DNA of 52,753 bases from Myxococcota bacterium (GTDB taxonomy: Bacteria; Myxococcota; XYA12-FULL-58-9; JASMKV01). Of this stretch, positions 12,956-43,824 are shown piece after piece. How positions within the stretch are numbered: the first letter of the stretch is position 1; each line of letters opens with the position of its first letter. A program made the position numbers and the translations under genes. The stretch is from assembly GCA_030749035.1 (NCBI GenBank), contig JASMKV010000329.1, forward strand, positions 1 through 52,753, written 5' to 3'. The notes under the pieces are model-generated. The model was not told the origin of the DNA and did no database searches. It worked only from the letters and a program-made list of their open reading frames with translations.

Positions 12956-13687
12956 CTAGAAAGTGTAGCGCAAAGTAAAGGCTGCTCCAAGTGCTGGGAT
13001 ATTGGGGCCAATGACATAATAACCCGTCAATGACATACCGGCGGTAAAGTCCGTCAGCAAAGTCAAATATTTCAGATCTAATCCACCTGAAACATGTGGC
13101 GCCATCGCCGGAAGATCCGCATTTTGATCTGCCGGATCGGTTAATGCTGGGTTCATCGAGGTCAATCCGCCACCCACCTTGGGCTCCAAGGCGAAACGTT
13201 GACCGGGCCGCAGGGCTGCAACCAATTGCACGCCAATATTAAAGAGACCATAGTTTTGCTTGCCTGTTGCATAAATAGGCTGATTGTTCTCTGAAATCGC
13301 ATTTCCAGAAGCGTACCCCGTCGACATACTACCTTGCACACTAATATAGTCGTTCAAATCAACCCCTGCATTTAAGCCCAAGTAAGGCTGCACATTAGAC
13401 ATCCCACTGGCACCTGCAAAGGTCAGAAACACACCCATATCTGTGGAGAGATAATAACCGCGTTGCAATTCAAAGACGGCCAAGCGATCCTCCTCACCAA
13501 TCTCTGGTAATTCTTCATCGCCTTGAGCCTCACCTGTATCGCCATCAAGCTCTGCTTCATAATCATCAAGTCCCTCTAAGAGGTCTTCGTCTTCGGCCGC
13601 TTCCTCTGCCCATGAGACCGCCGGTACCGCAAAAGTAACCAAACACGTCACACTAAACAGAACAAATAGATTCTTCAACCACAACAT
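12956..13687 (-). CDS. Outer-membrane beta-barrel protein, GltH/NfsH position
   Basis: A 243-residue protein with a signal peptide (cleavage probably after VSWA). The mature N-terminus is a strongly acidic stretch of about 45 residues including EDLLEGLDDYE. It is followed by alternating amphipathic strands rich in Gly, Tyr and Phe, and the protein ends in RYTF, an aromatic C-terminus expected of an outer-membrane barrel. The start at 13687 lies five bases after the upstream stop, with AGGGGG as ribosome-binding site; the open frame begins earlier at 13717. It is last in the eight-gene operon, where M. xanthus has GltH/NfsH, an outer-membrane component of the gliding or spore-coat machine. Assignment rests on position and barrel character, not on a unique motif. 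Confidence 0.7.
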   Translation of the reverse strand: MLWLKNLFVLFSVTCLVTFAVPAVSWAEEAAEDEDLLEGLDDYEAELDGDTGEAQGDEELPEIGEEDRLAVFELQRGYYLSTDMGVFLTFAGASGMSNVQPYLGLNAGVDLNDYISVQGSMSTGYASGNAISENNQPIYATGKQNYGLFNIGVQLVAALRPGQRFALEPKVGGGLTSMNPALTDPADQNADLPAMAPHVSGGLDLKYLTLLTDFTAGMSLTGYYVIGPNIPALGAAFTLRYTF

Positions 13688-13692
13688 TAATC

Positions 13693-15249
13693 TTAGCCCC
13701 CTGATTTGAATATCCACGGATAGGTCACATCAACCGTGCCCCCACCTGAGCATGGTGGGAATTTAAGTCTCTTGATCACTTTAAGAATACAATTCTCAAC
13801 ATTTGCATCCCCCATTGTGGATTCACCAATTTTCGATGAGATGACGGAGCCAGTAGGGCCAATAACGAATTGACAAGCAATCTTACCTTCAAGGTTTGGA
13901 TTTCTTGGCAATTCTTTTTCGTAACAATAACGTATTTGATTGTTTACGCGCCCAATAACCCGTCCAACAACAGCTCTGGATAAGCAACCTTTGGTGATTG
14001 TTCGCCCAGGAATGACAGCATATTTACCTTTACCACGACCACCCAAATCGATGTCGCCCATGCCACCGGTACCACGTCCAGTACCGCTGCCCAAGCCACC
14101 AATACCTAAACTGTTACCACCGCCACCTGGACCTGTACCACGTGAGCCCAGACCACCGGCACCACCGGCATCGCCCATCGCCGTACCACGTAAACCACCG
14201 AGGGCATTATTGATGCCTGTCCCTAAGCCACCTGGACCAAAAATATTGGAGGCTGCACCGCCTTCACCACCCTTAAGGGCGGCAAAAATTCCTGAATCCA
14301 TAGCGATCTTACGATCCTTTTCACGTTTGTTTGGATCAACCTTGGGTGCTCCGGCAGTACTCGCCAATGCATCTTGTTTATTCTCTTCAGGCTTACCAAA
14401 CTTACCCTCATCGTCCTTATGCTTAGCGCCACCTTTAGAACCGGAAAGTTCAAACTTTTTCTTCGGTTCTGGTGCTTTTTCTGGCTCCTTCAATATCAAT
14501 TTTGCAAATCGGTTCGGATTCTTGAACAAGTCCTCTTCCAAATCGCTGGGATCGATTGGTGTTAAAAGCAATGCCAAAAGGACAAACAAATGCCCGACAA
14601 AGGAAAGGCTTAAAACTTTTGTAAAATATAAATCAAGCGTCTTCATCAACGCGGCACGAGGAAAACGTGCTGGCGCAACATATTGTAAGACAAAGGTAAG
14701 TTGATCTATCTGGATAGCCACACGGTCGTTAAGCCCAACCCTATAGCTGAATTCTTTGTAGATCTTGCCATCAAGGCCTTCCTTCTGCTCACTCGTGACT
14801 TGTTTCGCGTCAACCAGCGCATCACCGGTGGTGATTTCGCCATCCTCGGCACGCACTTCCATGCTCATGGCATCAGACCACTTGACCACAAAGCTATCAT
14901 CCCTGACGTCAAGCAGAGAAAAATGCTCTAACGGCAAGCTCTCTGCCGCAATACGGAAATCATTCTTCTTGCCATCACCGACAGTAATGATTCGAGGCTC
15001 AATATAATGCCCCACGCTCATGACCGCCTCATGCCACAAAAGCACGACTTCGAGGGCCTTTTTATCGGCACTTGGTCTATCTTCGTCAGGCAAATGGTCC
15101 TTAAATATAAAGGTCGGTATGCCCGAAGCATCACGCTCCAAATCAGGCAAATCCATCTTTATGGGGCCATGCGACTCAACGCCCCCGTCATCACCCGATC
15201 GACGTGCAAAATCCTTTGCTTCCGATGTATTTTTCTTTTCCTCACTCAT
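13693..15249 (-). CDS. gltG: GltG/NfsG-like inner-membrane protein: FHA-like, TM, TonB-like C-terminus
   Basis: A 518-residue protein, started at ATG 15249 because AAGGA lies seven bases before it (the frame opens at 15270). Residues about 65-190 look like an FHA-type beta sandwich on the cytoplasmic side. One transmembrane helix lies at about 212-231. A long Gly-rich, flexible periplasmic segment (about 300-410) follows, and the final ~100 residues are a TonB-like fold with IRYCYEKELPRNPNLEGKI and IGPTGSV, the hallmark of the AgmX/PglI C-terminal family. In M. xanthus GltG (PglI) connects the inner-membrane motor to periplasmic and outer-membrane parts. Two paired cysteines in the C-domain may form a disulfide. 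The phosphopeptide-binding residues of a true FHA domain are not evident to me. Confidence 0.85.
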   Translation of the reverse strand: MSEEKKNTSEAKDFARRSGDDGGVESHGPIKMDLPDLERDASGIPTFIFKDHLPDEDRPSADKKALEVVLLWHEAVMSVGHYIEPRIITVGDGKKNDFRIAAESLPLEHFSLLDVRDDSFVVKWSDAMSMEVRAEDGEITTGDALVDAKQVTSEQKEGLDGKIYKEFSYRVGLNDRVAIQIDQLTFVLQYVAPARFPRAALMKTLDLYFTKVLSLSFVGHLFVLLALLLTPIDPSDLEEDLFKNPNRFAKLILKEPEKAPEPKKKFELSGSKGGAKHKDDEGKFGKPEENKQDALASTAGAPKVDPNKREKDRKIAMDSGIFAALKGGEGGAASNIFGPGGLGTGINNALGGLRGTAMGDAGGAGGLGSRGTGPGGGGNSLGIGGLGSGTGRGTGGMGDIDLGGRGKGKYAVIPGRTITKGCLSRAVVGRVIGRVNNQIRYCYEKELPRNPNLEGKIACQFVIGPTGSVISSKIGESTMGDANVENCILKVIKRLKFPPCSGGGTVDVTYPWIFKSGG

Positions 15250-15293
15250 CTTTTTATCCTTCAAATGCAATCATTAGGCTATGCGGTTCTTGT

Positions 15294-15539
15294 TTAGAGA
15301 TGATCCGGAGTGGACAAAAGCTCCGGCACAAAATTCTCTCGTAACTTAATCAAAGAAGAAAAACGACTTACCTTGCGGTTCACGATGTAGGAGCCTTCCG
15401 GCTTGGTCAACTCCCCCTCAATCAAAGCTTCGGAAAAATCAATCACCGTGCGTTTTTTGTACTTCACATCATCACCGGCCAAGCCGACAGCACCATACAA
15501 AAACAAGCTTAAAAAGGCCAAATATTTTAATGCTTTCAT
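15294..15539 (-). CDS. Small secreted protein, GltF/NfsF position
   Basis: An 81-residue protein (from ATG 15539, where AAGGAG is five bases upstream; GTG 15545 and ATG 15542 are alternatives). It has an N-terminal signal peptide ending near GLAG, then a short conserved-looking core, VIDFSEALIEGELTKPEG followed by SLIKLRENF. I recall similar short proteins in myxobacterial gliding loci. The order in the operon (between lipoprotein E and TonB-like G) matches GltF/NfsF of M. xanthus. Its molecular role is unknown; a periplasmic linker or assembly factor is plausible. Confidence 0.65.
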   Translation of the reverse strand: MKALKYLAFLSLFLYGAVGLAGDDVKYKKRTVIDFSEALIEGELTKPEGSYIVNRKVSRFSSLIKLRENFVPELLSTPDHL

Positions 15540-15552
15540 CATCACTCCTTCT

Positions 15553-16830
15553 TTAACTCCAACGCGTTTCAGTGTTCAACAATAATATCGAGCTTGCAGC
15601 ATCATCGGGCTTTACCGTTTCAACATTGCCCTCGGACGGCCCCGCATCAAGAGCTTGGCCCTCGTTTTCGCCACCCTCTTGCGGCGCACCTTCATCCTGA
15701 GGCAATTCGACGGGCCCTGCTTCCTCTTCAGCCTGCATCGCCCTTATCGCATCAATTAAACCATGGACGTGATGATCTTTCGCCAGGTTTTGCTTGGACT
15801 TCTGATAGGCCTCAAAATTTTCCAAGGCGCACTTATTGTCTCTTAACTGCGCCATACAGATGTTGCCCATCGCAAAGAGGAGTTCTTTCTCTGCAGGACA
15901 CAGCGCATAAGCTCTACCAAACTGCGCCAGTGCGTCCTTGCCTTTCTGCATACCTTCCAAAGCATAGCCAAGTGCACTGCTCGTATCACAAGTAAGAACA
16001 CCGGACTTAATGGCCTTATCGTAACTTGCCGCCGCACGCCCATAATCACGCCAGCGTAAAGCAATGGCGCCTATATTCGCATGCGCGACCGCATTATCGG
16101 GTGCAAGCTTTAAGCCCTGTTCAAACTCAAAAAGGGCACGTTGCTCATTGCCTCGTCTGGCCTGCATAAGACCTAAGTTGACAAAAATGGATGCATCCTT
16201 CTCATTAAGCTTTAACGCGTTACGCAAAAATGTCTCAGCCAAAGTCAACTTGCCCATGTCCGCATAAGTCAAACCAATGGACTTTGTCGCTTCGGCATTC
16301 GTCTGGTCCTTCATCAGAACTTTCCGCGCCGTATTGATGGCTTCGATAAATTTCTTATCTAAGCGCAAAATGACTGCATAAGTATTAAGCACATCGATAT
16401 CATCAGGATGCGCTTTTAACACTGGATGCAAAACTTTTGACGCATCCCCCACGCGCCCCAAAGCCACATAAACCCGCGCCAAATTTAATGCTGAAGCAAT
16501 ATTTTCTGGTTGAGCCTTTGCCGCAGCCTCAAACAACGCTGCTGCCTCTTTCATCTCGCCATGTCTCTCCAAAGAAATGGCATGGTTCACTTTGGCTGAA
16601 ATAAGTCCTGCATCAAGGGCATACGATTTTGCAAAATATTTTGCCGCCAACGGCCAATTTGCCTCGCGCCCCGCTTTTAAGCCTTCTACAAATTTACCTT
16701 CCGCAGGAGTCTTTGCCTCCGGCAGTGGTTCAAATTTATTCTGTGTTCCGGCACACCCCCACAACATGAGAGCCAAAAACAAGCTGGCCAGTTGACCACT
16801 TTGTCGAACGATGATGTTGCTCTTTTTCAT
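15553..16830 (-). CDS. TPR lipoprotein, GltE/NfsE (AglT)-like
   Basis: A 425-residue lipoprotein with a signal peptide ending in LWGC (Cys26). At least seven consecutive TPR units span about residues 45-350 (for example AVILRLDKKFIEAINTARKV and GLMQARRGNEQRALFEFEQG), and an acidic, Gly- and Glu-rich tail of ~60 residues follows. Its ATG overlaps the stop codon of the large TPR gene as TAATG, with GGAG eight bases upstream, a sign of translational coupling. Domain type, lipidation and place in the operon match GltE (AglT)/NfsE, the lipoprotein that ties the M. xanthus periplasmic complex to the outer membrane. Confidence 0.75.
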   Translation of the reverse strand: MKKSNIIVRQSGQLASLFLALMLWGCAGTQNKFEPLPEAKTPAEGKFVEGLKAGREANWPLAAKYFAKSYALDAGLISAKVNHAISLERHGEMKEAAALFEAAAKAQPENIASALNLARVYVALGRVGDASKVLHPVLKAHPDDIDVLNTYAVILRLDKKFIEAINTARKVLMKDQTNAEATKSIGLTYADMGKLTLAETFLRNALKLNEKDASIFVNLGLMQARRGNEQRALFEFEQGLKLAPDNAVAHANIGAIALRWRDYGRAAASYDKAIKSGVLTCDTSSALGYALEGMQKGKDALAQFGRAYALCPAEKELLFAMGNICMAQLRDNKCALENFEAYQKSKQNLAKDHHVHGLIDAIRAMQAEEEAGPVELPQDEGAPQEGGENEGQALDAGPSEGNVETVKPDDAASSILLLNTETRWS

Positions 16831-19800
16831 TATCGCATCTCCACCAATTCCGGTGAGGCAAAAAGCGACTCATCGGCTATAAGTTCATATTTATGAATCG
16901 CGGGAAAGCGCCCCGGCTCATACACCGCCAAAGCCTCCTGCGTTTTCTGCAACCAATCGTTATAAAGCCCCAGGTCGTATGCCTTCGTCAGCGCATTATC
17001 ATAGGCTTCGATGGCTTTTTCTTCCAAAGGAAAGCCTTTTTCCTGCAATGCAGCTTGGTAAATAATACATTGGTCTTCAGTCAAGCGTGACGGACAAGGC
17101 GCTTCAAACAATTCGTTGGCCAAGTTCTGATAGACCCGCCCAATACGGTAAAGTGATGCGATACCATAATCACCCTGACCCAACTGTAAGACCTGAGTGT
17201 AATGACCTTGCAACTCCTCAACTTTTTTCAGTTTTTCCACAAGATTCTTTGTGATCTGCTTTTCACTGCCCGTCAAAGTAAGCGCCATATAAGTCTCATA
17301 CTCAGCCTGCAAAAGCTCAAATGATGCATGCCCAACCGCATCTAAAGCACAGGCATCGGTCTTCTTATCATCAGGGAGCGCCTTATAAACCTTCACCAGA
17401 TTTGTCCAAGTGCCTGAATCCGCACGCTGCAGCTGCACCTTCGCCTCCGCAATCTTATATTCCGCACACATAAAACGCCCTGGATCGGACTTTTTGACTT
17501 TGGCCTTATAAATCTCGTAATGCTTAATCACCACGCTATAGTTTTTTTGCTTCTCGTGAATCAAACCAATACGCCAAACGATGTCTAAGACATCCTTTTT
17601 ACTCGGGAACTCACGCACGTAGGCATCAAAATCCAAAATCGCTTCAGTGTACTGCCCGAGACCTTCACGGAAAAGCCCCGCATTGAAAAGTGCATCTGCT
17701 TTTTTAGGGCCTTTCTTGAACTGCTTGGCATAAGCCTCATAATACTTCGCCGCACGCTCAAATTCCGCCAAGCGTTCATAAAAAGAAGCCGCCAAAAACA
17801 AAGTCTTCTCACGCAAGAGATCTGGCTCTGGCAAAGATGTGCCTTCTTTTTTGGTTTTCTTAATCTCGGCTGCGCTGATTTTGAAAGACGAGTACTCATT
17901 CAAAAGCTTTTCACTGGTGTCGATAGCTCTTTGCAGCAACCCTGCCTTGTCGTAATTGATCAGCGCATTAAACAAGCCGACCATCGCATATTTACTCTTA
18001 GGAAACTCAGTGGAAAAACCGTTATAATAGTTTGCAATTTCCTTAGGAGAAGCTTTAGGCTCGAACACGAAATGGATTTCATTAAATGAAGCCCCTTCGA
18101 CCAACTCGTCAACCTTTTTCTTGAAAGCCTTATTGGCAATTAAAATCTTGTGGTCCCTAAATTTACGAGACCATTGATTCAACTGCGACCAGTCCTCACG
18201 CACATTAAACGACTGCAAAATGGACTCTGCGCCCAAGCGCGCCAACTTATCATTTGGCCAGCGGTCAATGACCTCGCCAAAACGCTCAGCGGCTTTTTCA
18301 AATTGATTGTGGATGTAGTAGAGCCGTGCACTCTTAAACTTCACCTTAACCACTTCGGCATCCTTCGGTGCAACCTCGACAAAACGGTCATAGGCTTCAG
18401 CCAAACGCAATTCATTGGCGTCTAAAGTCTTTTCGGCGTAACTTTCGCCTTTTTTGAGAACCTTTAATTTCTCAAGCTCTTTGAGCGCACCTTTCGAGCG
18501 CCCTTTCTTCGATTCTCTAATCTTTTTACCAAGTGTTTCTTTGACACCACTGACAACTTTTTCCAAAGCCAAAACGGCAGTATAAGCTGAAGGAGTCGCA
18601 AACTCTCCTTTCTTATTCGCATTGATGACTGCGGTGTACTGAATCGCCGCTTCATCAAATTGCTTTAACTCAAAAAGAATTTCCGAATAGAAGAATCGGA
18701 ATTTATAACTGTTCACCGTTTCTCTAAACTTATCGAGATACTCCTTATAAATATCCCGAGCTAACTTATACGTTGCAACATCTTTTGTGCGCTGCGCATC
18801 ACGATGCTGTTCGGTCACCAAAGAAGCCAATTCCTGCTCAACAACCTCAAAGGCCGACTCCAAAATCCGCGCATTTCCAGAATTTTTCTGCGCCCAAATA
18901 CCGTTTGGCGAATAGAGGTCAATAAGACGTCGCACTTCACGACGCACATCTTCGGTCCTGCCGAGACGGGCATATGCGGCCATAATGGATGTCTGATTCT
19001 GAGGCGCTTCCCCCGCATAGGGCGCTTTATTATTCAATCTTTGAAATGTTTGAATCTCAAGAGCCGACTTACCTTCACGATTATAAAGTCCAGCTAAACG
19101 ATGCAGATATTTATAAGCACGCTTATCACCGACTTCTTCCTCATAAAAAGTAAATGCCTCTTCAACCGCATCTAAATGCGAATAAGTACGCACCATATCT
19201 GAAAGAGATTCACTCATCAGTTGGATACGATCACGCTTACCTAATTTACTCTTACCCTTCGCAGGACTTTGCTTCTTCGCATACGCTATGACTTGTCTAA
19301 ATTTTTCAAGAGCCTTCCCGTATTCCTGCAGGTTGTAATCACACCACGCCAGTTTATAGAGCGCAAACGAATAGATACGTGCTTTTTTGGTCTTAGCTGC
19401 TTTTTTATAAGCTTTAATCGCATTACTTAACTTATTCGCGTTAAAGAAATGCTCCCCCAGCTGCAACCATGCATCCGGCACATACACAGAGCGGGGAAAT
19501 TGCTTAATCAATTTCCAATAATATCTCACACCCTTCTTCTTTTGTCCCGCTTCATAATGGGCTGTACCCAGTGTATAGAGGACTTCGTCTTTTCTCGGAT
19601 ATGTACGATATTTTTTAAGGATCTTACCATAAAGCTTTAATGCTTCGCGACGATACAAACCGCTTTGCTTAAGCTCTGGCATGTCTTCAAACTTTGGCTG
19701 ACGGCCTTTCGAACCACGTTTATGCCATGCATCCAACGCCTCGTCCCATTCCTGCATGCCACGTAAATGCAGAAATTTACTTTTTGCCCAATACATTTCA

Positions 19801-20081
19801 GCCAATCGAAAAATTAACTCCGCTTTTTGCCCACCTTCAGGAATGGTGCCCATGAGTTTTTTTAGCTTGGCGATAGCTTCGTCACGCTTTCTGTCCGCCC
19901 TGACACTCATATCCACACCATCGCTCGAGCTAAGGTCAAATTGTGCCGGTGCCGAACGTTCTTCACGTGCATTTGCTCCCGGTTCCCCGCCACCCTTCGT
20001 CATCTTGGAGGCCTGCGCATACAAAGGCAGACTTAAGAGCATCGAAGTCAGGATTGCTTTACATGTCAATTGATTTACCAT
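16830..20081 (-). CDS. Large periplasmic TPR protein, GltD/NfsD (AgmU)-like
   Basis: A 1083-residue protein with an N-terminal signal peptide (cleavage probably after LYAQA) and no later membrane segment, so periplasmic. Almost the whole length is helical repeat: TPR units are clear at about residues 90-330 (for example DEVLYTLGTAHYEAGQKKKG) and 735-900 (for example ADALFNAGLFREGLGQYTEA), with more divergent repeats between. AAGGACAAG precedes the ATG. Size, secretion signal and operon position match GltD/AgmU and NfsD, the periplasmic scaffold that decorates the helical tracks in M. xanthus. It is followed by the lipoprotein gene through a one-base stop/start overlap. Confidence 0.75.
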   Translation of the reverse strand: MVNQLTCKAILTSMLLSLPLYAQASKMTKGGGEPGANAREERSAPAQFDLSSSDGVDMSVRADRKRDEAIAKLKKLMGTIPEGGQKAELIFRLAEMYWAKSKFLHLRGMQEWDEALDAWHKRGSKGRQPKFEDMPELKQSGLYRREALKLYGKILKKYRTYPRKDEVLYTLGTAHYEAGQKKKGVRYYWKLIKQFPRSVYVPDAWLQLGEHFFNANKLSNAIKAYKKAAKTKKARIYSFALYKLAWCDYNLQEYGKALEKFRQVIAYAKKQSPAKGKSKLGKRDRIQLMSESLSDMVRTYSHLDAVEEAFTFYEEEVGDKRAYKYLHRLAGLYNREGKSALEIQTFQRLNNKAPYAGEAPQNQTSIMAAYARLGRTEDVRREVRRLIDLYSPNGIWAQKNSGNARILESAFEVVEQELASLVTEQHRDAQRTKDVATYKLARDIYKEYLDKFRETVNSYKFRFFYSEILFELKQFDEAAIQYTAVINANKKGEFATPSAYTAVLALEKVVSGVKETLGKKIRESKKGRSKGALKELEKLKVLKKGESYAEKTLDANELRLAEAYDRFVEVAPKDAEVVKVKFKSARLYYIHNQFEKAAERFGEVIDRWPNDKLARLGAESILQSFNVREDWSQLNQWSRKFRDHKILIANKAFKKKVDELVEGASFNEIHFVFEPKASPKEIANYYNGFSTEFPKSKYAMVGLFNALINYDKAGLLQRAIDTSEKLLNEYSSFKISAAEIKKTKKEGTSLPEPDLLREKTLFLAASFYERLAEFERAAKYYEAYAKQFKKGPKKADALFNAGLFREGLGQYTEAILDFDAYVREFPSKKDVLDIVWRIGLIHEKQKNYSVVIKHYEIYKAKVKKSDPGRFMCAEYKIAEAKVQLQRADSGTWTNLVKVYKALPDDKKTDACALDAVGHASFELLQAEYETYMALTLTGSEKQITKNLVEKLKKVEELQGHYTQVLQLGQGDYGIASLYRIGRVYQNLANELFEAPCPSRLTEDQCIIYQAALQEKGFPLEEKAIEAYDNALTKAYDLGLYNDWLQKTQEALAVYEPGRFPAIHKYELIADESLFASPELVEMR

Positions 20082-20110
20082 CTTGTCCTTTTCCTAACTT
20101 AAGAGAGCAC

Positions 20111-21595
20111 CTAGAAGCATTCGCTACGTACTGCGTGCTCAATATAACCGATCTCATCTTTCCAGTATTCCCGCCGAAAACCCCAATGCTGCCATTGGTC
20201 GTTGGGAATCGCTGGACGGGGCAAACGAGCTCGTCTTCCTTTAAGAATTTCTTTTCCTTGTTCGAGCCACTTTCTCTCAGCGTCTGTGACCTCAAAATCG
20301 AGAATATTGATTTGATTTTGAAAATGCTGCAACATCACCTCTCGGTTACGAAGCTGCATACGGGCCCAGTTTCCTACCGCCGGTTCAAGCTGTTCTTGCT
20401 GCGAGATCAACACGGCTGTTAAATCATCCTGCAGTCGCGTAGAGCGCCAGGTGGCCATATTGGCAACGGCCTTTTTCTCCCACTCAATATGGGTCAAAAG
20501 ATAGTGGAAATCCTTGAAACGTTTTGTGTGACGCACTGAACGCGAGAGCTCTATAGAATAATTCGGATTGGAATCAGCGATCACGTGCCGATAATATTCC
20601 GCTGGAGCTCGAGATTCCTCCAAGTAGACACGAAGATCTGAAAGCATCGGATCATAATTTTCTTTGAAATAATCGACAGCCAGCCGCACACGATCCCATT
20701 GACATAAAACGAAGTATGTCGTCCCTTGCACAACATAAGCCTCAGGCATGTGACGCTTAGAGAAATAAGGCGCGGTTGCACTTTGCAGCTCGCCTAAGGT
20801 CTTGCCATATTCTTCCAAGCGGAAATAGGCCCATGCATTCTCATACATCGCGGTAAACCAAGACTCGCTAAAACGTGGCACCTCTTTAAAGCCCTCAGCC
20901 GCTTCACGATATTGTCCCAAGCCATATTTAACACGAGCCGCCGCCAGCTTAGACATGTCGCTGATGTATTTATGGTCCTCATCACTGGTGTCGTGATACA
21001 TCTGAGAGATTGCCCCAAAATGCTGCAATGCCTTCTCTGGCTGACCACGACGAATACTTAAAATCCCCAACAAATAACGGGCGCGCGGATAATAACGACT
21101 GTCATCAGCAACATACTCTAAAAATGCCTGGGCATCCTGATTCTTGCGCTGTCGAAAGGACAATTCCCCAACCATATAGTTGATTTGTGCAATCGAAGCA
21201 GAATCCAGCTGACCAAACGCATCTGGATTTAACCCATCGTTGATAAGATTTGGCACAATAAGGTGATCATGCAATTTGCGCTGAATATCCAACAAACCTT
21301 CGATGGCGTTAAAGTAATAACGGTTTCGAGGACCAATCTTAAATAGGTCAGAATAGTAAAAAAGCGCAGGAAGATAGAGTTCAAGTTTACGTAAACCTTC
21401 TGCCAAATAAATCTGTGCCTGATCGCGGTTATCCGGGTTGGCATCATTTAAGAGCACATCATAAAGTGCAAACACGGCTTGTTCGTATTTGTGGTCTTTA
21501 TAAAGTGAGAGCCCTTCATCCAAAGACTGGGCGTGTAACGCCACAGGGGATAAAATCAGCCAGAAAACAAGTAAATTCTTTTTCCAAAGTGTCAT
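20111..21595 (-). CDS. Periplasmic TPR protein, GltC/NfsC-like
   Basis: A 494-residue protein. I start at ATG 21595 (TAGGTG six bases upstream) rather than GTG 21604. A signal peptide ends near ALHAQ. TPR-like repeats run from about residue 23 to 330 (SLDEGLSLYKDHKYEQAVFA at the beginning). The last third is not clearly repetitive and contains RRARLPRPAIP before an aromatic, charged C-terminus. It lies between outer-membrane protein B and large TPR protein D, as does GltC/NfsC, which in M. xanthus is a periplasmic TPR partner of the A and B barrels. Assignment is by position, secretion and fold. Confidence 0.7.
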   Translation of the reverse strand: MTLWKKNLLVFWLILSPVALHAQSLDEGLSLYKDHKYEQAVFALYDVLLNDANPDNRDQAQIYLAEGLRKLELYLPALFYYSDLFKIGPRNRYYFNAIEGLLDIQRKLHDHLIVPNLINDGLNPDAFGQLDSASIAQINYMVGELSFRQRKNQDAQAFLEYVADDSRYYPRARYLLGILSIRRGQPEKALQHFGAISQMYHDTSDEDHKYISDMSKLAAARVKYGLGQYREAAEGFKEVPRFSESWFTAMYENAWAYFRLEEYGKTLGELQSATAPYFSKRHMPEAYVVQGTTYFVLCQWDRVRLAVDYFKENYDPMLSDLRVYLEESRAPAEYYRHVIADSNPNYSIELSRSVRHTKRFKDFHYLLTHIEWEKKAVANMATWRSTRLQDDLTAVLISQQEQLEPAVGNWARMQLRNREVMLQHFQNQINILDFEVTDAERKWLEQGKEILKGRRARLPRPAIPNDQWQHWGFRREYWKDEIGYIEHAVRSECF

Positions 21596-21604
21596 CAGTT
21601 GCAC

Positions 21605-22477
21605 CTACAGTAAAAAGCTCACGCCAATGAGGATCATTAATCGGTTTTGAATATCGGTATAAGTCCATCCAGCTTCCGTCGCGAGATCTGGATAAGCCAC
21701 ATCCCGTACTTCCACCCGATAGCCAAGAAAATCACTAAAGAACACACGCATACCGCCACCTAAGTGACCGGCAATTTTAAAACGATCGCTGCCACCTTCA
21801 GGGCTTCGCAAGCCTCGCCCAATGCCAACATCCTCGCCACAGCCATCTTGACTGGGCACACATGTTTCAAGCGTACTGGTTAAACCAAAGCCTGCTGAAA
21901 GATAGACATCATAATCCATCACCCAGTCGTAAAAGACCATTTTGCCGTAAAGTGCGGAGAACTGGGCACTCAAGGCACCAAAATAATTCATTTGCTTGAG
22001 GTCAACAACTTCAGGTGTCAATGACTCATACTCATACACATCGTAAACAAGCCCCGCATAATAGGCACCGAAAAGAAAAGGTATCGTCGTTGTAAAATCC
22101 AAAGCCAGATTTTCACGCATATGATAGGTTGCGGAAAACCCCAGACCATAGTGACCCACAAACTTATTGTTCAAAGAAAACACGCCCAAAGGTGCAAACT
22201 CAAAAGCGCTCTTCTTAGAAAAAGCGCGACGCTGAATCAAATAAATCGACTGGTCTTTGGTGCCGCGTAAAACTGGATCAACATGTGTCCCAGGAATCGA
22301 TATCGGCTCCTCTTCGACCTCTGCCTCCATCTCTTCTGCTGATTCATCATCGGCTTCGGCTTCCGCTTCGGGATCATCCTCAAGCAGGTCCTCGAGTTCT
22401 GACAATTCATCCGCCAGAGCAAGTTGTGGCTGCCCCAAAAAGAAAAGGCCAATACAAAAAGCAATAAACAATCGCAT
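21605..22477 (-). CDS. Outer-membrane beta-barrel protein, GltB/NfsB-like
   Basis: A 290-residue protein. ATG 22477 has AAGGA upstream and lies 11 bases after the previous stop; it gives a clean signal peptide ending LALA. The mature protein opens with a ~35-residue acidic run (SELEDLLEDDPEAEAEAD). A barrel-like domain follows, with alternating strands, the motif GYRVEVRDVAY near the end, and a C-terminal IGVSFLL. The 'xVRDxxY' strand is typical of the myxobacterial outer-membrane barrel family that includes CglE-like and Glt barrels. Its position next to a second barrel and a TPR gene matches GltB/NfsB. Confidence 0.75.
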   Translation of the reverse strand: MRLFIAFCIGLFFLGQPQLALADELSELEDLLEDDPEAEAEADDESAEEMEAEVEEEPISIPGTHVDPVLRGTKDQSIYLIQRRAFSKKSAFEFAPLGVFSLNNKFVGHYGLGFSATYHMRENLALDFTTTIPFLFGAYYAGLVYDVYEYESLTPEVVDLKQMNYFGALSAQFSALYGKMVFYDWVMDYDVYLSAGFGLTSTLETCVPSQDGCGEDVGIGRGLRSPEGGSDRFKIAGHLGGGMRVFFSDFLGYRVEVRDVAYPDLATEAGWTYTDIQNRLMILIGVSFLL

Positions 22478-22488
22478 GCTAAATCCTT

Positions 22489-23274
22489 CTAAAAGAGCAA
22501 AAAGCTCAGGCCAAACTGACCAAACCAATGATGAGACGCATAGGAATCCTCGACCCCATCTTTGTCAAAATCAAACTTGTCGAAAAAGACCAAATCCCGA
22601 AACTCTGCACGCAGAGCTAAACGTTCAAGAAAAAAGAAACGAATACCGGCCCCAACCAGGCCATTGACTTTCATGCCATCTAAAAAGCCGCCCGCCCCAA
22701 AGCCTTGCGCTGAGAGCGTATAATCTGCTGCGGAGACGGGGTTAGACGCCTCGATATTGCGTGTGCCATTCACACCCAACCCGGCAAGGTAATAAATCTG
22801 CATACTCGCATCGAGCTCAGAAACCATATTGATTTTGCCGTAGAAAGGCGACCACTCAAAAATCGCATCGATCATACCTGTCATTTGCGCATAATCGGGC
22901 AAGTCAGGATTGATGTCGCAACCGCCCACCTCTGTACACTTGGTAATTTTATTTCCAATCACACCGGCAGGATCGGTGACAATATTGGTCAGCTGACCAT
23001 TGAGCATCCCGACACTCAATGCGGCCCCCATGGTGTCACTAAAGTGATACGTGAAATCCAGAACACCGCCCAGATGTTTCGTGTATTTGTCGATCATCGA
23101 TGTCGCGAAAAGCAAAGAAACCTCGCCGCGTCCTAACGTGGGATAACCGGAATCTTCAATCGCAGGCGCACCTGCAAAATCGCTGTCACCAAAAGGGTCA
23201 TTGGAATATTCAGGACCCGCTGCAAAAGCCGAACCTGCCAACAAAGTCCAAAGCAGAACTATTGTTATACGCAC
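22489..23274 (-). CDS. Outer-membrane beta-barrel protein, GltA/NfsA-like (first gene of operon)
   Basis: A 261-residue protein beginning at GTG 23274 with AAGGAG six bases upstream. The signal peptide ends at GSAFA. The rest is a predicted outer-membrane barrel with the AEFRDLVFFD strand near the C-terminus and a terminal SFLLF. The RDL(V/A) strand is shared with the next gene's product (VRDVAY), so A and B are probably paralogues. It is the first gene of the eight-gene run, facing a 339-base divergent intergenic region that should hold the operon promoter. The matching M. xanthus proteins are GltA and NfsA. Confidence 0.75.
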   Translation of the reverse strand: MRITIVLLWTLLAGSAFAAGPEYSNDPFGDSDFAGAPAIEDSGYPTLGRGEVSLLFATSMIDKYTKHLGGVLDFTYHFSDTMGAALSVGMLNGQLTNIVTDPAGVIGNKITKCTEVGGCDINPDLPDYAQMTGMIDAIFEWSPFYGKINMVSELDASMQIYYLAGLGVNGTRNIEASNPVSAADYTLSAQGFGAGGFLDGMKVNGLVGAGIRFFFLERLALRAEFRDLVFFDKFDFDKDGVEDSYASHHWFGQFGLSFLLF

Positions 23275-23613: not shown

Positions 23614-24069
23614 GTGCCCTTAGTTGATCTGTTTTCAGAGCCTGAACGCTTCAAGGCACTCCTCAAAGATTCTGCCAAGCTGCTGGAAAATCAGGTCGCC
23701 AATAAAAAAGGACTCGCCGGTATGGCCATCAAAACCAGCTTTGGGGTCGTCAAACAAATGAAGCCGGGCTTTATTGAAGAAGTCTTAACCCATCTTTTAC
23801 CGAAGTTTCTGGAAAAACTTGAACCTTTTTACGCGCATTTTCAAAAAGAAGAATGGGAAAATTTTGCAACCTTCCTGCGCTCTAAGACCGAAGAAGTTGC
23901 CAATGCGCTCTTGAGTGTCACCGATCAAAGAGCCGCACAGACAGAACTGACCTCGCTGAAAAAAACCTACGAAAAATTGCGACCTGCCGCCCAGCGCCAT
24001 GTACAAGATGCCATCCCCGCTTTAGCGGAACTACTTGATAAGTACATCAAAACCGATCATAAAGGCTAA
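23614..24069 (+). CDS. Conserved hypothetical helical protein (DUF6918-like)
   Basis: A 151-residue, all-helical soluble protein with no signal peptide. It starts at GTG 23614 with AAGGAG eight bases upstream. Phrases such as NKKGLAGMAIKTSFGVVKQMKPG, split over two helices, and VADALL-like segments (here VANALLSVTDQRAA) recall the DUF6918 family, small proteins of unknown function best known in actinobacteria. That recall is from memory and needs a profile search. It is followed three bases later by the membrane protein gene and is probably in the same transcript. Confidence 0.65.
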   Translation: MPLVDLFSEPERFKALLKDSAKLLENQVANKKGLAGMAIKTSFGVVKQMKPGFIEEVLTHLLPKFLEKLEPFYAHFQKEEWENFATFLRSKTEEVANALLSVTDQRAAQTELTSLKKTYEKLRPAAQRHVQDAIPALAELLDKYIKTDHKG

Positions 24070-27369: not shown

Positions 27370-29136
27370 TCAAGGCTGAGCTTCGATGTCTTCTGCCGGC
27401 CCAGGATCGCTTGTTGAATCTTCTGCCTCTGACACCTCGTCTACGCCAGAAGATTTCTCTGCCACGTCTGGCTGCTCTGAAGAAGCCCCCGTGTCCAGAG
27501 GCTCTTCTGGGGTCACATCGGGCTCGAGAGGCGTCTCCGTGACAACCTCACCGGCCGCATTGACCACAGGGATCCCTTGTATGGTGCGATTATGTTCGCG
27601 TATCTGTTCAACCGCATGCTCTTCCATTTCTCCAGGACCGCTGATCTCAATATTTTGCACTTTTTCAGTTTCTTTATCGGTTGCTGAAACCTGCACGATA
27701 CCGTCTGTATCAACCTCAAAAACAACTTCTATTTTCACCGTTCCTGCCGGTAAAGACTTTAAGTCGGGGAGTAAAAATTCGCCCAATGATTCAAATTCAT
27801 CAAAACTCAAATCAGAAGACTGCGCGATTTGAAACTTTAAGGACTCTTGATTGTCACGGGTCGTTGTAAATATTTTTCGTGAACGCGCCGGTACGGTTGT
27901 ATCTTTTTCAATCACCGTTTCAAACTTATTTCCCGTCACAACAAGCCCCAAGTGCTGGGGTGTCACATCAAGTAACAGCGTATCGAGTTCACCTTCTTTA
28001 AGCATGTAGCCTTGTACTGCTGCACCGCAGGCAACGGCCTCATCAGGATGCACTGCCTTGGATGGTGGCACGCCAAAAAAATCCTCTACCGCCGCTTGAA
28101 TCGTCAGCATTCGACTCATACCACCAATAAGAATAACCTGATCGATAGAGTCACCTTGTATATCTGCTGCATCCAGGGCTTTTTGACATATTTCGATGGT
28201 TTTATGCACCAAATCCTCAACCAACTCTGAAAGCTTTTCCCTATTCAAACGTAAGTCGACATTAATAAATGTTCCGTCCTCTTTTTTCGCCAAATAGGGC
28301 AAAGACAGATTCGACTCACTCTTTCCGGTCAACTCAACTTTCATCTTCTCTGCGGCTTGTTTAATGCGCGGCTTTAAATCCCTTTGAGCACGTAAATCAA
28401 CGCCATGTGTTTTTTCTATTTCTTCAAAAATCCAGTCGACAATGCGATGGTCAAAATCATCCCCACCTAGGTTTGCATCACCGGCTGTTGCCAGCACCTC
28501 AAAAACACCATCAGAGATATCCAAAAGAGAAATATCAAAAGTCCCGCCACCAATATCGTAGATGGCAACCCTTTGACCAAGTTTCTTACCAAAGCCATAA
28601 GCTAAAGCCGCCGCGGTTGGTTCATTGATAATGCGCACGACGGTTAAGCCGGCGATTTTTGCCGCATCACGGGTCGCCTGCCGCTGTCTATCGTTAAAAT
28701 GCGCCGGTACCGTCACAACCGCATATTCAACATCTTCGCCCAAGGCCTCTTCAGCCAAACTTTTGAGTTCCTCCAAAAGCATGGCACTTATTTGAACGAC
28801 CGGAACTTTTTTGCCTCCGAAATCAATTTCGACCGCATTGCTATCACTTGCACTCACATTAAAAGCGACTTTATCGGCAAATTCCTGTGTGTCTCTTGAA
28901 TTCCATCTCCGACCGATCAAGCGCTTAAATGAATAAAAGGTATTTTCTGGATTCGTGATGGCCTGCTCATGCGCCGCTGATCCTGCGATGCATTTACCTT
29001 CAGCGGTCAACGCCACCACGGATGGCACGGTGCGTTTATCGCCAGCACCAGAAAGTACACGTGGCCCCTCTTTATCAACTAAGGCCACACAAGAGTTGGT
29101 GGTGCCAAGATCAATTCCTATAATATGCGTCAACAT
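27370..29136 (-). CDS. DnaK-like Hsp70 paralogue lacking the C-terminal lid
   Basis: A 588-residue Hsp70. The nucleotide-binding domain has [13 protein letters not shown], the [12 protein letters not shown] phosphate-2 motif, and [11 protein letters not shown] substrate-binding beta domain follows up to about residue 500. The usual helical lid is missing; instead the last ~80 residues are acidic and Pro/Ser-rich, ending EDIEAQP, and look disordered. That makes it a specialised paralogue rather than the housekeeping DnaK. It follows, 30 bases downstream, a J-domain protein gene, so the two probably act as a client-specific chaperone pair. M. xanthus has a DnaK-like protein (SglK) needed for surface motility, a possible parallel but not shown here. 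Confidence 0.9.
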
Positions 29137-29166
29137 CGCTTATCTCGTATCCTTTAACCCTGCGTC

Positions 29167-30435
29167 CTAGCGTATTTCTTTGGCTAAGCGTTTAATCATT
29201 TTTTTGATATTGGCATCCTCTTTATCGATACTTTGCGCCATTTCTGCATGCACCAATGCGCCCGCATAATCTTGACGGGCTTCGAGAACACTCGCCGCAA
29301 CAAGGCGAGATTTCTTCGACCTTGGCGCCGCTTTGACCGCGCGATTTGCATAAAACCACGCTGCATCATAATCATCGGTCTTAAAATACTCCTCGGCCGC
29401 ACGAACGGCAAAACGCTCAGTATTTTGCACCAAATCAGAGGCTTGCGCATATTCTCTCGCAGCCTGGCCAGGGTTACCCGCCGATGAATCGAGATCTGCT
29501 GTTTCTGCTATACCTATCGCTTTTTGTTCAACTGCTTTGTCTTGTGTTTCTTTAAACTGATGTCGATATTCACCATTATGTGGCGCAAAAGTGCTCGCTA
29601 ATTTAAAACTCGCTGCGGCCGAATATAAATCGCCAGCACGCAATTGCTCCATCCCCATTTCATGCAAATCTTTGGCTTTTTTCAAGTTGCCTTCGGCCGG
29701 TACACGGGAACGCCGCTTGTCTTTAATCAATCGACGCCGCTCTTCAAGCCGCTCTTGTCTTTCATCCTTTTTTTTGCGTTGCGCCTCGATCAATTCCAAG
29801 CGGGCGCGACGCTCTGGATCCATCTCAATTTCACTCTCAGCGTCATCCTCATCCTCAACTTCATCCATCACCACCTGATCAAGTCCACTTTCTTCAATAA
29901 TCTTTTTGGCGTAAACCTTGCGCTGGTCATCTTCGGCAAGAAAATCGTGCGCCTCCTTCATCGCACGAAAAATGATCTCCATACGCTTACGAAAATCACC
30001 AAGCTTTCGACCAAAATACATGTCGGGATGAAAACGCTTTGAACCTGCCAGGAAAGCCTTGCGAAGATCCGCACCGCGCACAGAAGGAGCAAGATCCAGA
30101 ATCTCAAAATAATTTCCTTCAGCAATGACTTTTTCCTGGGCAATAATCATATTTTGTTCATCAGGCGTGAGATCGCATTTGGCATCAGACTTCGCCACAG
30201 GCGCAACATCCTCAAAGCCGATGACGCCATTCTGCTCGAGTAGAGCGAGCTTTGTGCGCAATTCTTCCTGCGAAAGCTTCATTAACACAGCAAGTTTTTC
30301 GCAATCGTTTTCACCATCGATATGGGCAAGGATGCTGAGCACCTCTTCGTCAAGATTTAAGGCTGGAACATCAACCTCTTTAAGCAGCTTGGGCTTCTGC
30401 TTTAATCGCTCCTCAACAAGTGCACCCATCTCCAA
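29167..30435 (-). CDS. J-domain protein with C-terminal TPRs
   Basis: A 422-residue protein. The J-domain is at about residues 108-170 with the essential HPD tripeptide at 136-138 (KRFHPDMYF), which stimulates Hsp70 ATPase. An N-terminal ~80-residue helical domain precedes it. A very basic, charged helix (RRARLELIEAQRKKKDERQE) and TPR-like repeats (about 270-420) follow. There is no Gly/Phe or zinc-finger region, so it is not a canonical DnaJ. The frame opens at TTG 30435; ATG 30429 is an alternative, and neither has a good Shine-Dalgarno. It is the middle gene of three on this strand and should partner the DnaK paralogue downstream. Confidence 0.85.
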   Translation of the reverse strand: MEMGALVEERLKQKPKLLKEVDVPALNLDEEVLSILAHIDGENDCEKLAVLMKLSQEELRTKLALLEQNGVIGFEDVAPVAKSDAKCDLTPDEQNMIIAQEKVIAEGNYFEILDLAPSVRGADLRKAFLAGSKRFHPDMYFGRKLGDFRKRMEIIFRAMKEAHDFLAEDDQRKVYAKKIIEESGLDQVVMDEVEDEDDAESEIEMDPERRARLELIEAQRKKKDERQERLEERRRLIKDKRRSRVPAEGNLKKAKDLHEMGMEQLRAGDLYSAAASFKLASTFAPHNGEYRHQFKETQDKAVEQKAIGIAETADLDSSAGNPGQAAREYAQASDLVQNTERFAVRAAEEYFKTDDYDAAWFYANRAVKAAPRSKKSRLVAASVLEARQDYAGALVHAEMAQSIDKEDANIKKMIKRLAKEIR

Positions 30436-30509
30436 ACTATTGAGGATTTACGCCGAAGTTGCAAGAGCTGATTGTGCCAAGCACACAAGTTCGAGAGAAC
30501 GGCCTGAGC

Positions 30510-31841
30510 TTATTGCTGGTATTTCGCAATCACTTTTTTAACCTCTGGCGTATCAGCGTGCTCAGGCTCAAGCTCAACAAAGCGCTGATAAAAAGAAACC
30601 GCCTGCGTAATATTTCCAGCACGCATATAGGCAATACCCAGTGACCGAAAAGCCAAGCCAAAATGTGGATTCTCCGCAATCGCCAACTCTAAAGATTTGA
30701 TCGACTCTTCAACCCGGTTTTCATTCAAAAATTGATTGCCGGCCAAATAATGGCTGCGCGCTTCCTTTTCATCAACAGGCGAGATGACCTTTGGCTTTTC
30801 AGATGGCTTTTCAGACACACTCTTTTGCGCGTGTGTTTTGTCACCGGCTTCTGCAGCAGATGTACCGACTTTCTCTGGCGTATCTTCCCCTTGATGCTCT
30901 ACCCCTTTGGGTTCATCTTTCTGTACCGTTTCGGGGGCTTCAATCCTGGCTGATGTCTGACTTGGCTCGTTTGGGCTAAAAAAAGTCACCATGCCAAAAC
31001 CTGCAAGGGCCAAGACCCCCAGCGCAACAAGTGGCTTGCGATTTTGCTTCGGACGGATATGAACCGACCGTATTGCGGTTGGCGAAACAGGCTTGGGCGT
31101 TGGGGCCTGAGAAGACTCAACCTTAAACGATGGCCGAGCACGTCCAAACACAACATCGTCCTGGGAAACCTTGGACCACTTATTAGGACCACCGGCAGCC
31201 GCTTTTGCGCCTGCACCGGAGAGATGATCGCTGGCCACAGCCTTTTGCTCGCGAAAACGCTCCTTGGCTTCATTTAAGATATCCCTACCCTCCACGTCCT
31301 CACTTGCTGCCGGAGGAGGCGCAAACGCTAAGTGTGCATCCTCAACAAGAGGTTCGCCCCCAGCATCTGACTCGCTGTTCTCGAGAACCTCCGAAGCCTC
31401 AACATCTGAATCCGCCGGCACAGAAGACTCGACCACGCCATAAGGCATCTCCGATTCGGACTCGACAGAGGGCTCAGGCTCCACAGAGGGCTCAGGTTCG
31501 ACAGAGGGCTCAGGCTCCACAGGGGCCTCGGCAGCGTCCTCGTCCACACTCGCCGGCGCAGATTCTAGCGATGTGGGTGCGTCTAAAACATCATCTGGAG
31601 CGTCTTCGTCTTTTGAAATTTCAGCATTCAGGGCAGATGCCGGAACCAATTCGCTGCCATCGTCAGCCTGGGCATCTGCGTCTTCGGTCTCCACCATATC
31701 GGGCGCCGGCATCACCAAACCATCGGGCGCAACACGAGTGAGACCCTGGCACGCCTTGCATTCGACAAGATTCACATCATCAAGCAGCTGAGCCGAACGT
31801 ACAAAGATGGGCTGAGTGCAATATGGGCACGGAACAAGCAT
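30510..31841 (-). CDS. Zinc-ribbon, transmembrane, TPR protein with acidic repeat linker
   Basis: A 443-residue protein. Two CxxC pairs at the N-terminus (PCPYC and ECKAC) form a probable MJ0042-like zinc ribbon in the cytosol. A long acidic, Pro/Ser/Glu-rich linker follows, with a SVEPEP repeat encoded by 18-base units, then one transmembrane helix at about residues 270-290 (LGVLALAGFGMVTFF), a charged spacer, and C-terminal TPRs (AIAENPHFGLAFRSLGIAY). Topology therefore resembles GltJ: cytosolic zinc ribbon, linker, single membrane pass, periplasmic module. It is first in the run with the J-protein and DnaK paralogue. It may be an inner-membrane adaptor of the same envelope machine, but that is inference. 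Confidence 0.75.
   Translation of the reverse strand: MLVPCPYCTQPIFVRSAQLLDDVNLVECKACQGLTRVAPDGLVMPAPDMVETEDADAQADDGSELVPASALNAEISKDEDAPDDVLDAPTSLESAPASVDEDAAEAPVEPEPSVEPEPSVEPEPSVESESEMPYGVVESSVPADSDVEASEVLENSESDAGGEPLVEDAHLAFAPPPAASEDVEGRDILNEAKERFREQKAVASDHLSGAGAKAAAGGPNKWSKVSQDDVVFGRARPSFKVESSQAPTPKPVSPTAIRSVHIRPKQNRKPLVALGVLALAGFGMVTFFSPNEPSQTSARIEAPETVQKDEPKGVEHQGEDTPEKVGTSAAEAGDKTHAQKSVSEKPSEKPKVISPVDEKEARSHYLAGNQFLNENRVEESIKSLELAIAENPHFGLAFRSLGIAYMRAGNITQAVSFYQRFVELEPEHADTPEVKKVIAKYQQ
31461..31526 (-). repeat. 18-bp tandem repeat encoding SVEPEP
   Basis: About 3.6 copies of an 18-base unit (ctcgacagagggctcagg on the plus strand, with one- to two-base variants) lie inside the zinc-ribbon/TPR gene and encode a SVEPEP repeat in its acidic linker. 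The near-identity of the units suggests recent expansion, and copy number may vary between strains. Confidence 0.85.
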
Positions 31842-34213: not shown

Positions 34214-36049
34214 CTAAGGAACAACGATAGGGCCCAGTGAAAAATTGCTCACGGGCGATGGGTTTTTGGCCGGTGGAAACTGCCAAAGCAGCATGCGATC
34301 ACTCACGCAGGCTGGTATATTACTCACCAGAATTTTATCCGGACCCTTAATTTTCGCCTCAGAGACACGGCCATTGACACCGATCAACCAATCCATGGTA
34401 AGTCGATAACTTCCGCCTTCAATTTGCTGACGCCCATAAGATTTATTAAAGCATATCTGAACATCACCCTGGTAATCTTTCACCGTAGAGATAATTTGAT
34501 CTAAAGTAAGCGCGTTTTGCGACGCTTCAATTTTCTCTACAATAGGCTCCAAAGCCAGGGCCTTCTGACTGGCTTGCTCTTTCTTCACTGATTTGATGGG
34601 CTTAATCGGTTTCGCATTATGCAATTGCCTTAAGACTTCATCGACACGCTTATTGACCGCCATATCCATATCCGTGGCAGAAGGTCGACTCACCAAGACA
34701 AAAATAAGGGCGCTCGACAAAAGAATAATCGCGCCAAATAAGATAACAGTGAGGCGTTGCGGTGGCTCTACTGAGCGGGGAATTGATTTTTTAGGTACAA
34801 CCCAACCCTGACTCAAATCTTCGGCGGAAGCATCCGAGCTCGCTTCTGTCCGCTTAAGCTCTTCTTGGCTCGGCTCTAAGCCAGCAACTTCGACACTGGG
34901 CCCACTCTCGATATCTGGCTCCTCGGAAAAATCTCCGGCAGGGGCCTGCGCTTCCTCAGCCTGATGCACGCCGTGAATTTCTTCCTGCACCAAATCACTT
35001 AAATCACTCCCAATCGCCGTCACCTGAGTGTCGCCATAAGTCTCTGGCACAGCCAAATCAACACCATCGATAGGGCTATCGAAAGTCAATTCATCAACGT
35101 CGTTCTCTGCAGCCCCGCCCATGGCTTGCTGCCTTAAGTCCGCCAAATTAAGCGAAGCGGCTCTATCAGGAGCGTCTGTCGCGCCCGCCTCTAAACCTAA
35201 ATATGCTGCCAAAACAGGCACTTCAGCCACCGGCACCCAGTCAGCCATACCCGCTGACCACACCAAGCTCTCTTCATCAATTTCCTGCGCCAACCAACGC
35301 GCCTGTAAGGTTGGTCCCAACATAGGGCCGATCTGCTCCCCATCAATGGCCACATACCACTGACGTGTCTCGAGCTCCACATCCATCGGCAACGTCGTAG
35401 CTTGCTCGGCTGTCTTCTCAGCAAATTCATCGTCATCGTCTGAGGCATCATCAAAATCCTCTGAACTTTCCTGATCCTCTTGTCCACCTAAAGACGCCAA
35501 CGCCAGCGCTTCAATATTTCCTCCGGTGTCCAAAGCCCCCACGGGCATTTGCAGCGTCTCTTGACCCACAAAATTACCTTGGGACTCCTGCGCACGCATC
35601 TGCATGCTTTCAAAATCTGCCGTGGTGAAAGCTTCGGTCGGAGGGTCAAAATGACTTACAACCGTATGTTCCGCATTATCGTCCGCAACGTGGGCACTCA
35701 CGACAGCCTGGTGCTCGGCAACTTGTTGCATCTCCAAGCCCCCGTCACCTGCAACCGCTTCGCTTTCCTCATTGCCGGTACGCATTTTAATGTCGTTGAT
35801 GTCTTCGGAACTAAAAGTGCGGGTATCAAGATCCTGAAAATCACTGCTTTCCATCACCAGAGTCGCTTCATGTTGTCCAAAAGCGATCTCCGCTTCTGCA
35901 GGCGAAATGTTCTCTTGTGCAGAGGTATCAGATAAATGCACCGTAATGATGTTCCCACATTTTTTGCAATTAACGCGAATACCCAAAGAACCGATTTTCG
36001 AATCTTCTACCCGGTATTCGGCGCTGCAATTCCCACAAGAAAAATCCAT
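34214..36049 (-). CDS. gltJ: GltJ (AgmX)-like protein: zinc ribbon, GYF, TM, TonB-like C-terminus
   Basis: A 611-residue protein from ATG 36049, where the zinc-ribbon homology begins (the open frame extends to 36091). Domains in order: MJ0042-type zinc ribbon with Cys5/Cys8 and Cys28/Cys31; a long acidic linker containing an imperfect repeat (61-90 and 127-152); a GYF-type domain at about 228-285 (RQWYVAIDGEQIGPM); a further linker; one transmembrane helix at 433-453; and a C-terminal TonB-like domain (about 515-611, with VQICFNKSYGRQQ). This is the architecture of M. xanthus GltJ (AgmX), whose cytosolic zinc ribbon and GYF domains respond to MglA and whose periplasmic end contacts the Glt complex. 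It follows the giant TPR gene by 50 bases, as gltJ follows gltI. Confidence 0.85.
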   Translation of the reverse strand: MDFSCGNCSAEYRVEDSKIGSLGIRVNCKKCGNIITVHLSDTSAQENISPAEAEIAFGQHEATLVMESSDFQDLDTRTFSSEDINDIKMRTGNEESEAVAGDGGLEMQQVAEHQAVVSAHVADDNAEHTVVSHFDPPTEAFTTADFESMQMRAQESQGNFVGQETLQMPVGALDTGGNIEALALASLGGQEDQESSEDFDDASDDDDEFAEKTAEQATTLPMDVELETRQWYVAIDGEQIGPMLGPTLQARWLAQEIDEESLVWSAGMADWVPVAEVPVLAAYLGLEAGATDAPDRAASLNLADLRQQAMGGAAENDVDELTFDSPIDGVDLAVPETYGDTQVTAIGSDLSDLVQEEIHGVHQAEEAQAPAGDFSEEPDIESGPSVEVAGLEPSQEELKRTEASSDASAEDLSQGWVVPKKSIPRSVEPPQRLTVILFGAIILLSSALIFVLVSRPSATDMDMAVNKRVDEVLRQLHNAKPIKPIKSVKKEQASQKALALEPIVEKIEASQNALTLDQIISTVKDYQGDVQICFNKSYGRQQIEGGSYRLTMDWLIGVNGRVSEAKIKGPDKILVSNIPACVSDRMLLWQFPPAKNPSPVSNFSLGPIVVP

Positions 36050-36099
36050 GATGTTATTTCTTACAAAAGATGGGCCGCACGGCAAGATCAAAGAGCAGC

Positions 36100-43587: not shown

Positions 43588-43824
43588 GCCTTAAATCGTA
43601 TCCCCGTGCTGAGAAAAGACGCAGCTCACGCCTCAAGCTCAGCCTAAACCGCTTTATTAAAGCAGCCATATAGGCCTGTCCAGCGAGAAATTTCAATCCT
43701 TTAAACGCTTATGGTGCAATCTATATCGTAAAATCAGCTCAAAGAAGACTCGAACCCACTAATTGCCCCGTGCATATGTTTAAATATAGACAAATTAAGG
43801 GAAAAAAGGTTAAACCAAGAACAT
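43588..43824. promoter_or_regulatory. Divergent intergenic region between gltI-like and DUF192 genes
   Basis: 237 bases without a supported gene. It should hold promoters for the giant TPR gene (minus) and the DUF192 gene (plus). The plus side is AT-rich close to 43825 (tgtttaaatatagacaaatta). I found no clear -35/-10 pair and no RNA gene. Confidence 0.4.

What the first reader, a model, noticed from the sequence alone, without database searches (positions are those of the whole stretch)
12956..23274. Contiguous eight-gene operon with the gltA-H/nfsA-H order of M. xanthus
Eight minus-strand genes with gaps of at most 44 bases: OM barrel, OM barrel, periplasmic TPR, large periplasmic TPR, TPR lipoprotein, ~80-residue secreted protein, FHA-like/TM/TonB-like protein, OM barrel. 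This order and fold series equals nfsA-H (one operon) and, split over two clusters, gltA-H of M. xanthus. In those systems the complex carries a motile envelope apparatus or moves spore-coat polysaccharide. Its presence in an apparently low-GC, non-myxobacterial-looking genome points to an ancestral or repurposed form.
Basis: partly seen in the sequence, partly recalled or inferred. Interest (0 to 1): 0.85.

Follow-up and report, generated by a model that had tools for sequence, protein, structure and literature searches.

The report
Nfs envelope-machine operon in uncultured myxobacterium
This is a complete eight-gene set for a cell-envelope transport machine known from Myxococcus spore formation; it belongs to the spore-coat (Nfs) branch rather than the gliding (Glt) branch, both branches turn out to be old and shared across the phylum, and this genome has lost the gliding set but kept two of its partner genes.

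Summary
In detail: eight co-directional genes with gaps of at most 44 bp match GltA-H/NfsA-H in order and family. The interpretation needs three corrections. (1) The genome belongs to Myxococcota (about 47% GC, an uncultured order); it is not a foreign lineage. (2) A tree of 47 loci (proteins C+D+G, 2089 columns) places the operon inside the Nfs clade (100/100), not the Glt clade (100/100). Both clades run through the phylum, so the Glt/Nfs split is old; published text calls it a recent terminal-branch duplication. The same operon sits in a conserved neighbourhood in sister families, so it is inherited, not transferred. (3) This genome has lost Glt A-H. In four relatives the block RapA-p44-DUF192 flanks Glt A-H; in the window it abuts GltI directly. 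GltI and GltJ are kept but evolve fast, MglA is kept, and MglB and the AglRQS-orthologous motor were not found. NfsG here also lacks the N-terminal FHA domain that M. xanthus-type NfsG has. Most likely it is an Nfs-type, proton-motive-force-driven surface-transport complex doing a job other than Glt gliding. The cargo and the motor pairing are inferred.

The parts
22489..23274 (-). NfsA-type outer-membrane beta-barrel protein (GTG start)
   Evidence: TIGR04565 OMP_myx_plus 79.4 bits; 43-54% identity to order-mates
21605..22477 (-). NfsB-type outer-membrane beta-barrel protein (start at first ATG; the longest ORF reaches 22528)
   Evidence: TIGR04565 81.1 bits; start by signal peptide
20111..21604 (-). 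NfsC-type periplasmic TPR protein
   Evidence: NF033756 GltC 185.8 bits; Nfs clade in trees
16830..20081 (-). NfsD-type large periplasmic TPR protein, 1083 aa
   Evidence: 532 bits to G049 NfsD versus 376 to G049 GltD
15553..16830 (-). NfsE-type TPR lipoprotein (lipobox LWGC)
   Evidence: NF033758 GltE 99.5 bits
15294..15545 (-). NfsF-type small secreted protein, 83 aa
   Evidence: NF033764 CglF 57.7 bits
13693..15270 (-). NfsG-type transducer: degenerate FHA-like domain, TM helix, Gly-rich linker, TonB-like tail; lacks the N-terminal canonical FHA domain
   Evidence: NF033760 residues 201-649, NF033768 tail 101.5 bits; PF00498 absent here, present in G049 NfsG and G006 GltG; model
12956..13717 (-). 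NfsH-type outer-membrane protein (CglE family; first ATG at 13687)
   Evidence: NF033755 135.5 bits over cut-off 70
36100..43587 (-). GltI orthologue, TPR protein, 2495 aa (relatives about 3560 aa)
   Evidence: 2017 bits to G006 GltI, 585 to G049 GltI
34214..36091 (-). GltJ orthologue: zinc ribbon, GYF, TM, TonB-like tail; fast-evolving
   Evidence: matches PDB 7ZOK and 7Z3C (AgmX); alignment
43588..43824 (.). Empty site: where Glt A-H lies in same-order relatives
   Evidence: RapA-p44-DUF192 flank Glt A-H in G002, G004, G005, G006
43825..49655 (.). DUF192-like, p44 and RapA block, the ancestral flank of Glt A-H
27370..31841 (-). DnaK-like, DnaJ-domain and zinc-ribbon/TPR genes, conserved neighbours of I/J in the order
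23614..24069 (+). DUF6918 gene, conserved neighbour of nfsA in the order

Best explanation
12956-23274 is a vertically inherited orthologue of M. xanthus nfsA-H. Inferred mechanism: an inner-membrane proton channel of the ExbB/ExbD (AglRQS-like) type, encoded elsewhere, pulls on the TM helix and TonB-like tail of G. Force passes through the periplasmic TPR proteins C, D and lipoprotein E, with F, to the outer-membrane proteins A, B and H, so that the complex travels in the envelope and drags a surface polymer or adhesin. In this genome it is the only A-H set, because the Glt gliding set was deleted. It therefore most likely carries out surface-polymer transport in a job other than MglA/MglB-controlled Glt gliding. 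Shown: orthology, operon structure, loss of Glt A-H from its locus, presence of motor-type genes and MglA, no MglB found. Inferred: motor pairing, movement, cargo.
For: Families; Nfs-clade placement at 100/100 and rejection of a Glt placement; syntenic A-H plus conserved neighbours in sister families; RQS-type motor sets at C494 and C370; TonB-like tail and TM in G; AglRQS powers Nfs through AglR-NfsG in M. xanthus (PMC3858216).
Against: No expression or function data. The motor clade that holds the presumed AglRQS of G049 was not found in this genome, so pairing is uncertain. NfsG lacks the canonical FHA domain. The Exo (MASC) polymer locus was not identified; only one polysaccharide-export protein was found.
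Confidence: 0.65

Rival explanations
1. The operon is the Glt gliding complex itself, in an ancestral one-operon form.
For: Same gene order; GltI and GltJ orthologues lie 11 kb away; MglA present.
Against: Tree places it in Nfs; grouping with Glt rejected, delta lnL 753; relatives carry both a Glt and this operon; MglB absent.
Confidence: 0.04
2. Hybrid: after loss of Glt A-H, the Nfs complex took over GltI, GltJ and MglA and drives gliding.
For: GltI absent in the other Glt-less genomes tested (G003, G043, G051, G052) but kept intact here; GltJ zinc ribbon and GYF kept; MglA well conserved; Nfs genes evolve at a normal rate.
Against: I and J evolve fast and I has lost about 1000 aa, which fits relaxed constraint too; MglB absent; MglA may serve type IV pili, whose ATPases are present.
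Confidence: 0.18
3. Spore-coat or cyst-coat assembly exactly as in M. xanthus.
For: Orthology to nfsA-H, required for spore-coat assembly in M. xanthus (PMC3858216).
Against: Present in very diverse lineages and in small 2.7-4 Mb genomes; sporulation in this order is unknown; no Exo locus identified.
Confidence: 0.15
4. Static or lipid/protein-transport envelope scaffold without movement.
For: Function of core complexes outside Myxococcus is untested; PMC3858216 itself suggests protein or lipid cargo.
Against: G has the TonB-like energy-transducing layout, and motor-type genes are present.
Confidence: 0.12

Closest known systems
Nfs complex of M. xanthus (nfsA-H)
   Same: Orthologous by tree; same eight genes, same order, one operon
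   Different: NfsG lacks the N-terminal FHA domain; genome lacks Glt A-H; GltI/J lie nearby; lineage not known to sporulate
Glt gliding complex of M. xanthus (gltA-K)
   Same: Paralogous A-H; GltI and GltJ orthologues present in the window
   Different: A-H belongs to the other paralogue; Glt A-H deleted here; no MglB found
Core complex D-E-F-R-Q-S-G (C494 in this genome, 2.32 Mb locus in G049)
   Same: Shares D, E, F and G homologues and brings its own motor genes
   Different: Separate clade; the D-to-G stretch carries the motor genes and no A, B or H was found in it

Membership tests
Nfs (nfsA-H) | Proteins group with M. xanthus-type Nfs rather than Glt | tested here: met
   C+D+G tree, Nfs clade 100/100; Glt placement rejected
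Nfs (nfsA-H) | All eight genes A-H in one co-directional cluster | tested here: met
Nfs (nfsA-H) | No I, J or K within the cluster | tested here: inconclusive
   None within A-H, but GltI and GltJ are 11 kb away; K not searched
Nfs (nfsA-H) | Powered by AglRQS | tested here: inconclusive
   Two RQS sets exist, neither in the clade of the presumed G049 AglRQS
Nfs (nfsA-H) | Needed for spore-coat (Exo polymer) assembly | not testable with these tools
   uncultured MAG
Glt gliding machinery | A-H proteins fall in the Glt clade | tested here: not met
   no GltC- or GltG-clade protein in the genome
Glt gliding machinery | GltI and GltJ present | tested here: met
Glt gliding machinery | MglA/MglB polarity module | tested here: not met
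   MglA present, MglB not found
Glt gliding machinery | GltK and adhesin CglB | not tested
   genome searches exhausted

The most novel reading that the evidence does not exclude
A natural swap: in a lineage that deleted its Glt A-H gliding module, the ancient Nfs paralogue recruited the orphaned GltI/GltJ and MglA and now forms a single hybrid motility or transport machine without MglB.
Probability: 0.18. Interest if true: 0.7.

Novelty: new member of a known kind. Interest (0 to 1): 0.42.

Why it matters
The literature describes Glt and Nfs as products of a recent duplication in one terminal branch (PMC3858216). Here both paralogues run through many family-level lineages of Myxococcota, so the Nfs machine predates its known use in Myxococcus spores and its original job is open. 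Natural Nfs-only genomes (this one, G003) and a Glt-only genome (G005) offer ready comparisons for asking what each module does.

Tried and rejected
Glt identity was rejected by tree and constrained tests. Horizontal transfer into a foreign genome was rejected: same phylum, order-mates with the same neighbours. Missing Glt as an assembly gap alone is unlikely: the flanking block abuts GltI on the same contig, though a copy moved to an unassembled region cannot be excluded. The structure model of NfsA is too poor to use (pLDDT 45); its best but non-significant Foldseek hits are small barrels. In one search the G002 GltJ row was read in a wrong frame and is ignored; one search gives the usable values. 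Literature searches for a phylum-wide Glt/Nfs study found none in the held library.

Full report
Observation. The eight ORFs exist as described, co-directional on the minus strand at 12956-23274, with spacings of -1 to 44 bp. NCBIfam names H as CglE and A and B as OMP_myx_plus above cut-off; G, C, E and F match GltG, GltC, GltE and CglF below cut-off but specifically. D has only TPR matches there, but matches D proteins at the same position in many loci.

Where it is. The window is contig C329 of a 527-contig, 97.7%-complete genome of 3.97 Mb. It shares a phylum with G049, a 9.0-Mb genome whose GltJ domain is nearly identical to the PDB chain of M. xanthus AgmX and whose gene layout matches the published one: gltA-C and gltD-J apart, nfsA-H together (PMC3858216). 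I therefore use G049 as a stand-in for M. xanthus; its name is not given by the tool. Named relatives with the same operon are Myxococcota and Deltaproteobacteria MAGs, and one labelled Bdellovibrionales. So the low GC is real but the lineage is myxobacterial in the broad sense.

Which paralogue. Single trees of C, D and G and a concatenated tree (47 loci, 2089 columns) give two clades; in the concatenated tree each has support 100/100. One holds GltC/D/G of G049, the other NfsC/D/G of G049. The window lies in the second, next to its order-mates. Forcing it into Glt costs 753 log-likelihood units; making the two G049 systems sisters costs 1266 (few AU replicates). Many families (for example those of G002, G004, G006, G008, G011, G012, G013, G019, G024, G027, G050 and G049) carry both systems. 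The split is thus older than these families' divergence, whereas PMC3858216 speaks of a recent duplication in a terminal branch. The tree lacks a firm outgroup, but the conclusion does not depend on the root.

Loss of Glt here. Searches with GltC and GltG models find no Glt-clade protein in this genome. In four order-mates the p44-DUF192 pair (with RapA beyond it in G002, where the fetched stretch reaches that far) lies beside GltA; in G006 the operon then runs on into GltI and GltJ, followed by MTAP, OMP32, TPR4, DnaJ and DnaK. The window has the same series without Glt A-H: DUF192 is 237 bp from GltI. This is a direct sign of deletion rather than a mere assembly gap. G003 also lacks Glt but lacks GltI too. 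GltI was found in every Glt-bearing genome tested and missed in the Glt-less G003, G043, G051 and G052; this genome is the exception (one search used a strict threshold).

State of the leftovers. GltJ keeps the zinc ribbon and GYF domains that match AgmX structures. GltI is intact but about 1000 residues shorter. Both evolve faster here: GltI is 40-42% identical to four relatives that share 56-66% with each other, while Nfs C, D and G and some flanking genes show no such excess; the DnaK-like gene and DUF6918 are also faster. MglA is highly similar to M. xanthus MglA; MglB (Roadblock) was not found here or in G003 but was in G006 and G049. Bdellovibrio also keeps MglA without MglB (PMC3983030). 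Pilus-type ATPases are present.

Motor. The genome has an ExbB-ExbD-ExbD set inside a third core complex (C494) and another on C370. A tree places neither with the set at 8.16 Mb of G049 that I take for AglRQS. That set is also missing from the hit lists of some Glt-bearing relatives, so motor-complex pairing looks loose.

Protein G. The N-terminal FHA domain (PF00498) found in G049 NfsG and G006 GltG is absent from the window protein and two order-mates. The remaining soluble domain models as a FHA-like beta sandwich (weak Foldseek matches), followed by a TM helix and a TonB-like tail.

Mechanism. From M. xanthus work, AglRQS uses the proton-motive force, contacts NfsG or GltG, and drives the complex with its bound polysaccharide (PMC3858216). 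I infer the same layout here. Cargo, motor and biological role are unproven.

Novelty. The operon is a new member of a known kind. The unexpected parts are the age of the Nfs branch and the Nfs-only genome with orphaned GltI/GltJ.

Noticed in passing
G000:C494 (L036:907-9887): A third core complex D-E-F-ExbB-ExbD-ExbD-G with its own motor genes; its relatives in G006 (C277) and G049 (2.32 Mb) sit next to mglBA.
   Followed up: partly
G000:C262 (L151:8860-10127): recR is followed directly by mglA; no mglB between them, and none was found elsewhere in the genome.
   Followed up: yes
27370-31841: DnaK-like, DnaJ-domain and zinc-ribbon/TPR genes form a conserved block beside GltI/J in the order; the DnaK-like gene also evolves fast in this genome.
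   Followed up: partly
24551-26665: Secreted M10 metalloprotease weakly like the MXAN_2677/2678 family, with a C-terminal Cys, TM, Arg-rich tail like a myxosortase signal; conserved neighbour of nfsA.
   Followed up: no
5227-7152: TPR lipoprotein weakly similar to outer-membrane-exchange TraC, next to an enolase; the pair is also near GltI/J in G006.
   Followed up: no
L150 / G003: Record titled 'Bdellovibrionales bacterium' falls in the same order as this Myxococcota genome by the tool's kinship and by synteny; the public label may be wrong.
   Followed up: no
G005: Only a Glt operon and no Nfs operon found: the reverse of this genome.
   Followed up: no
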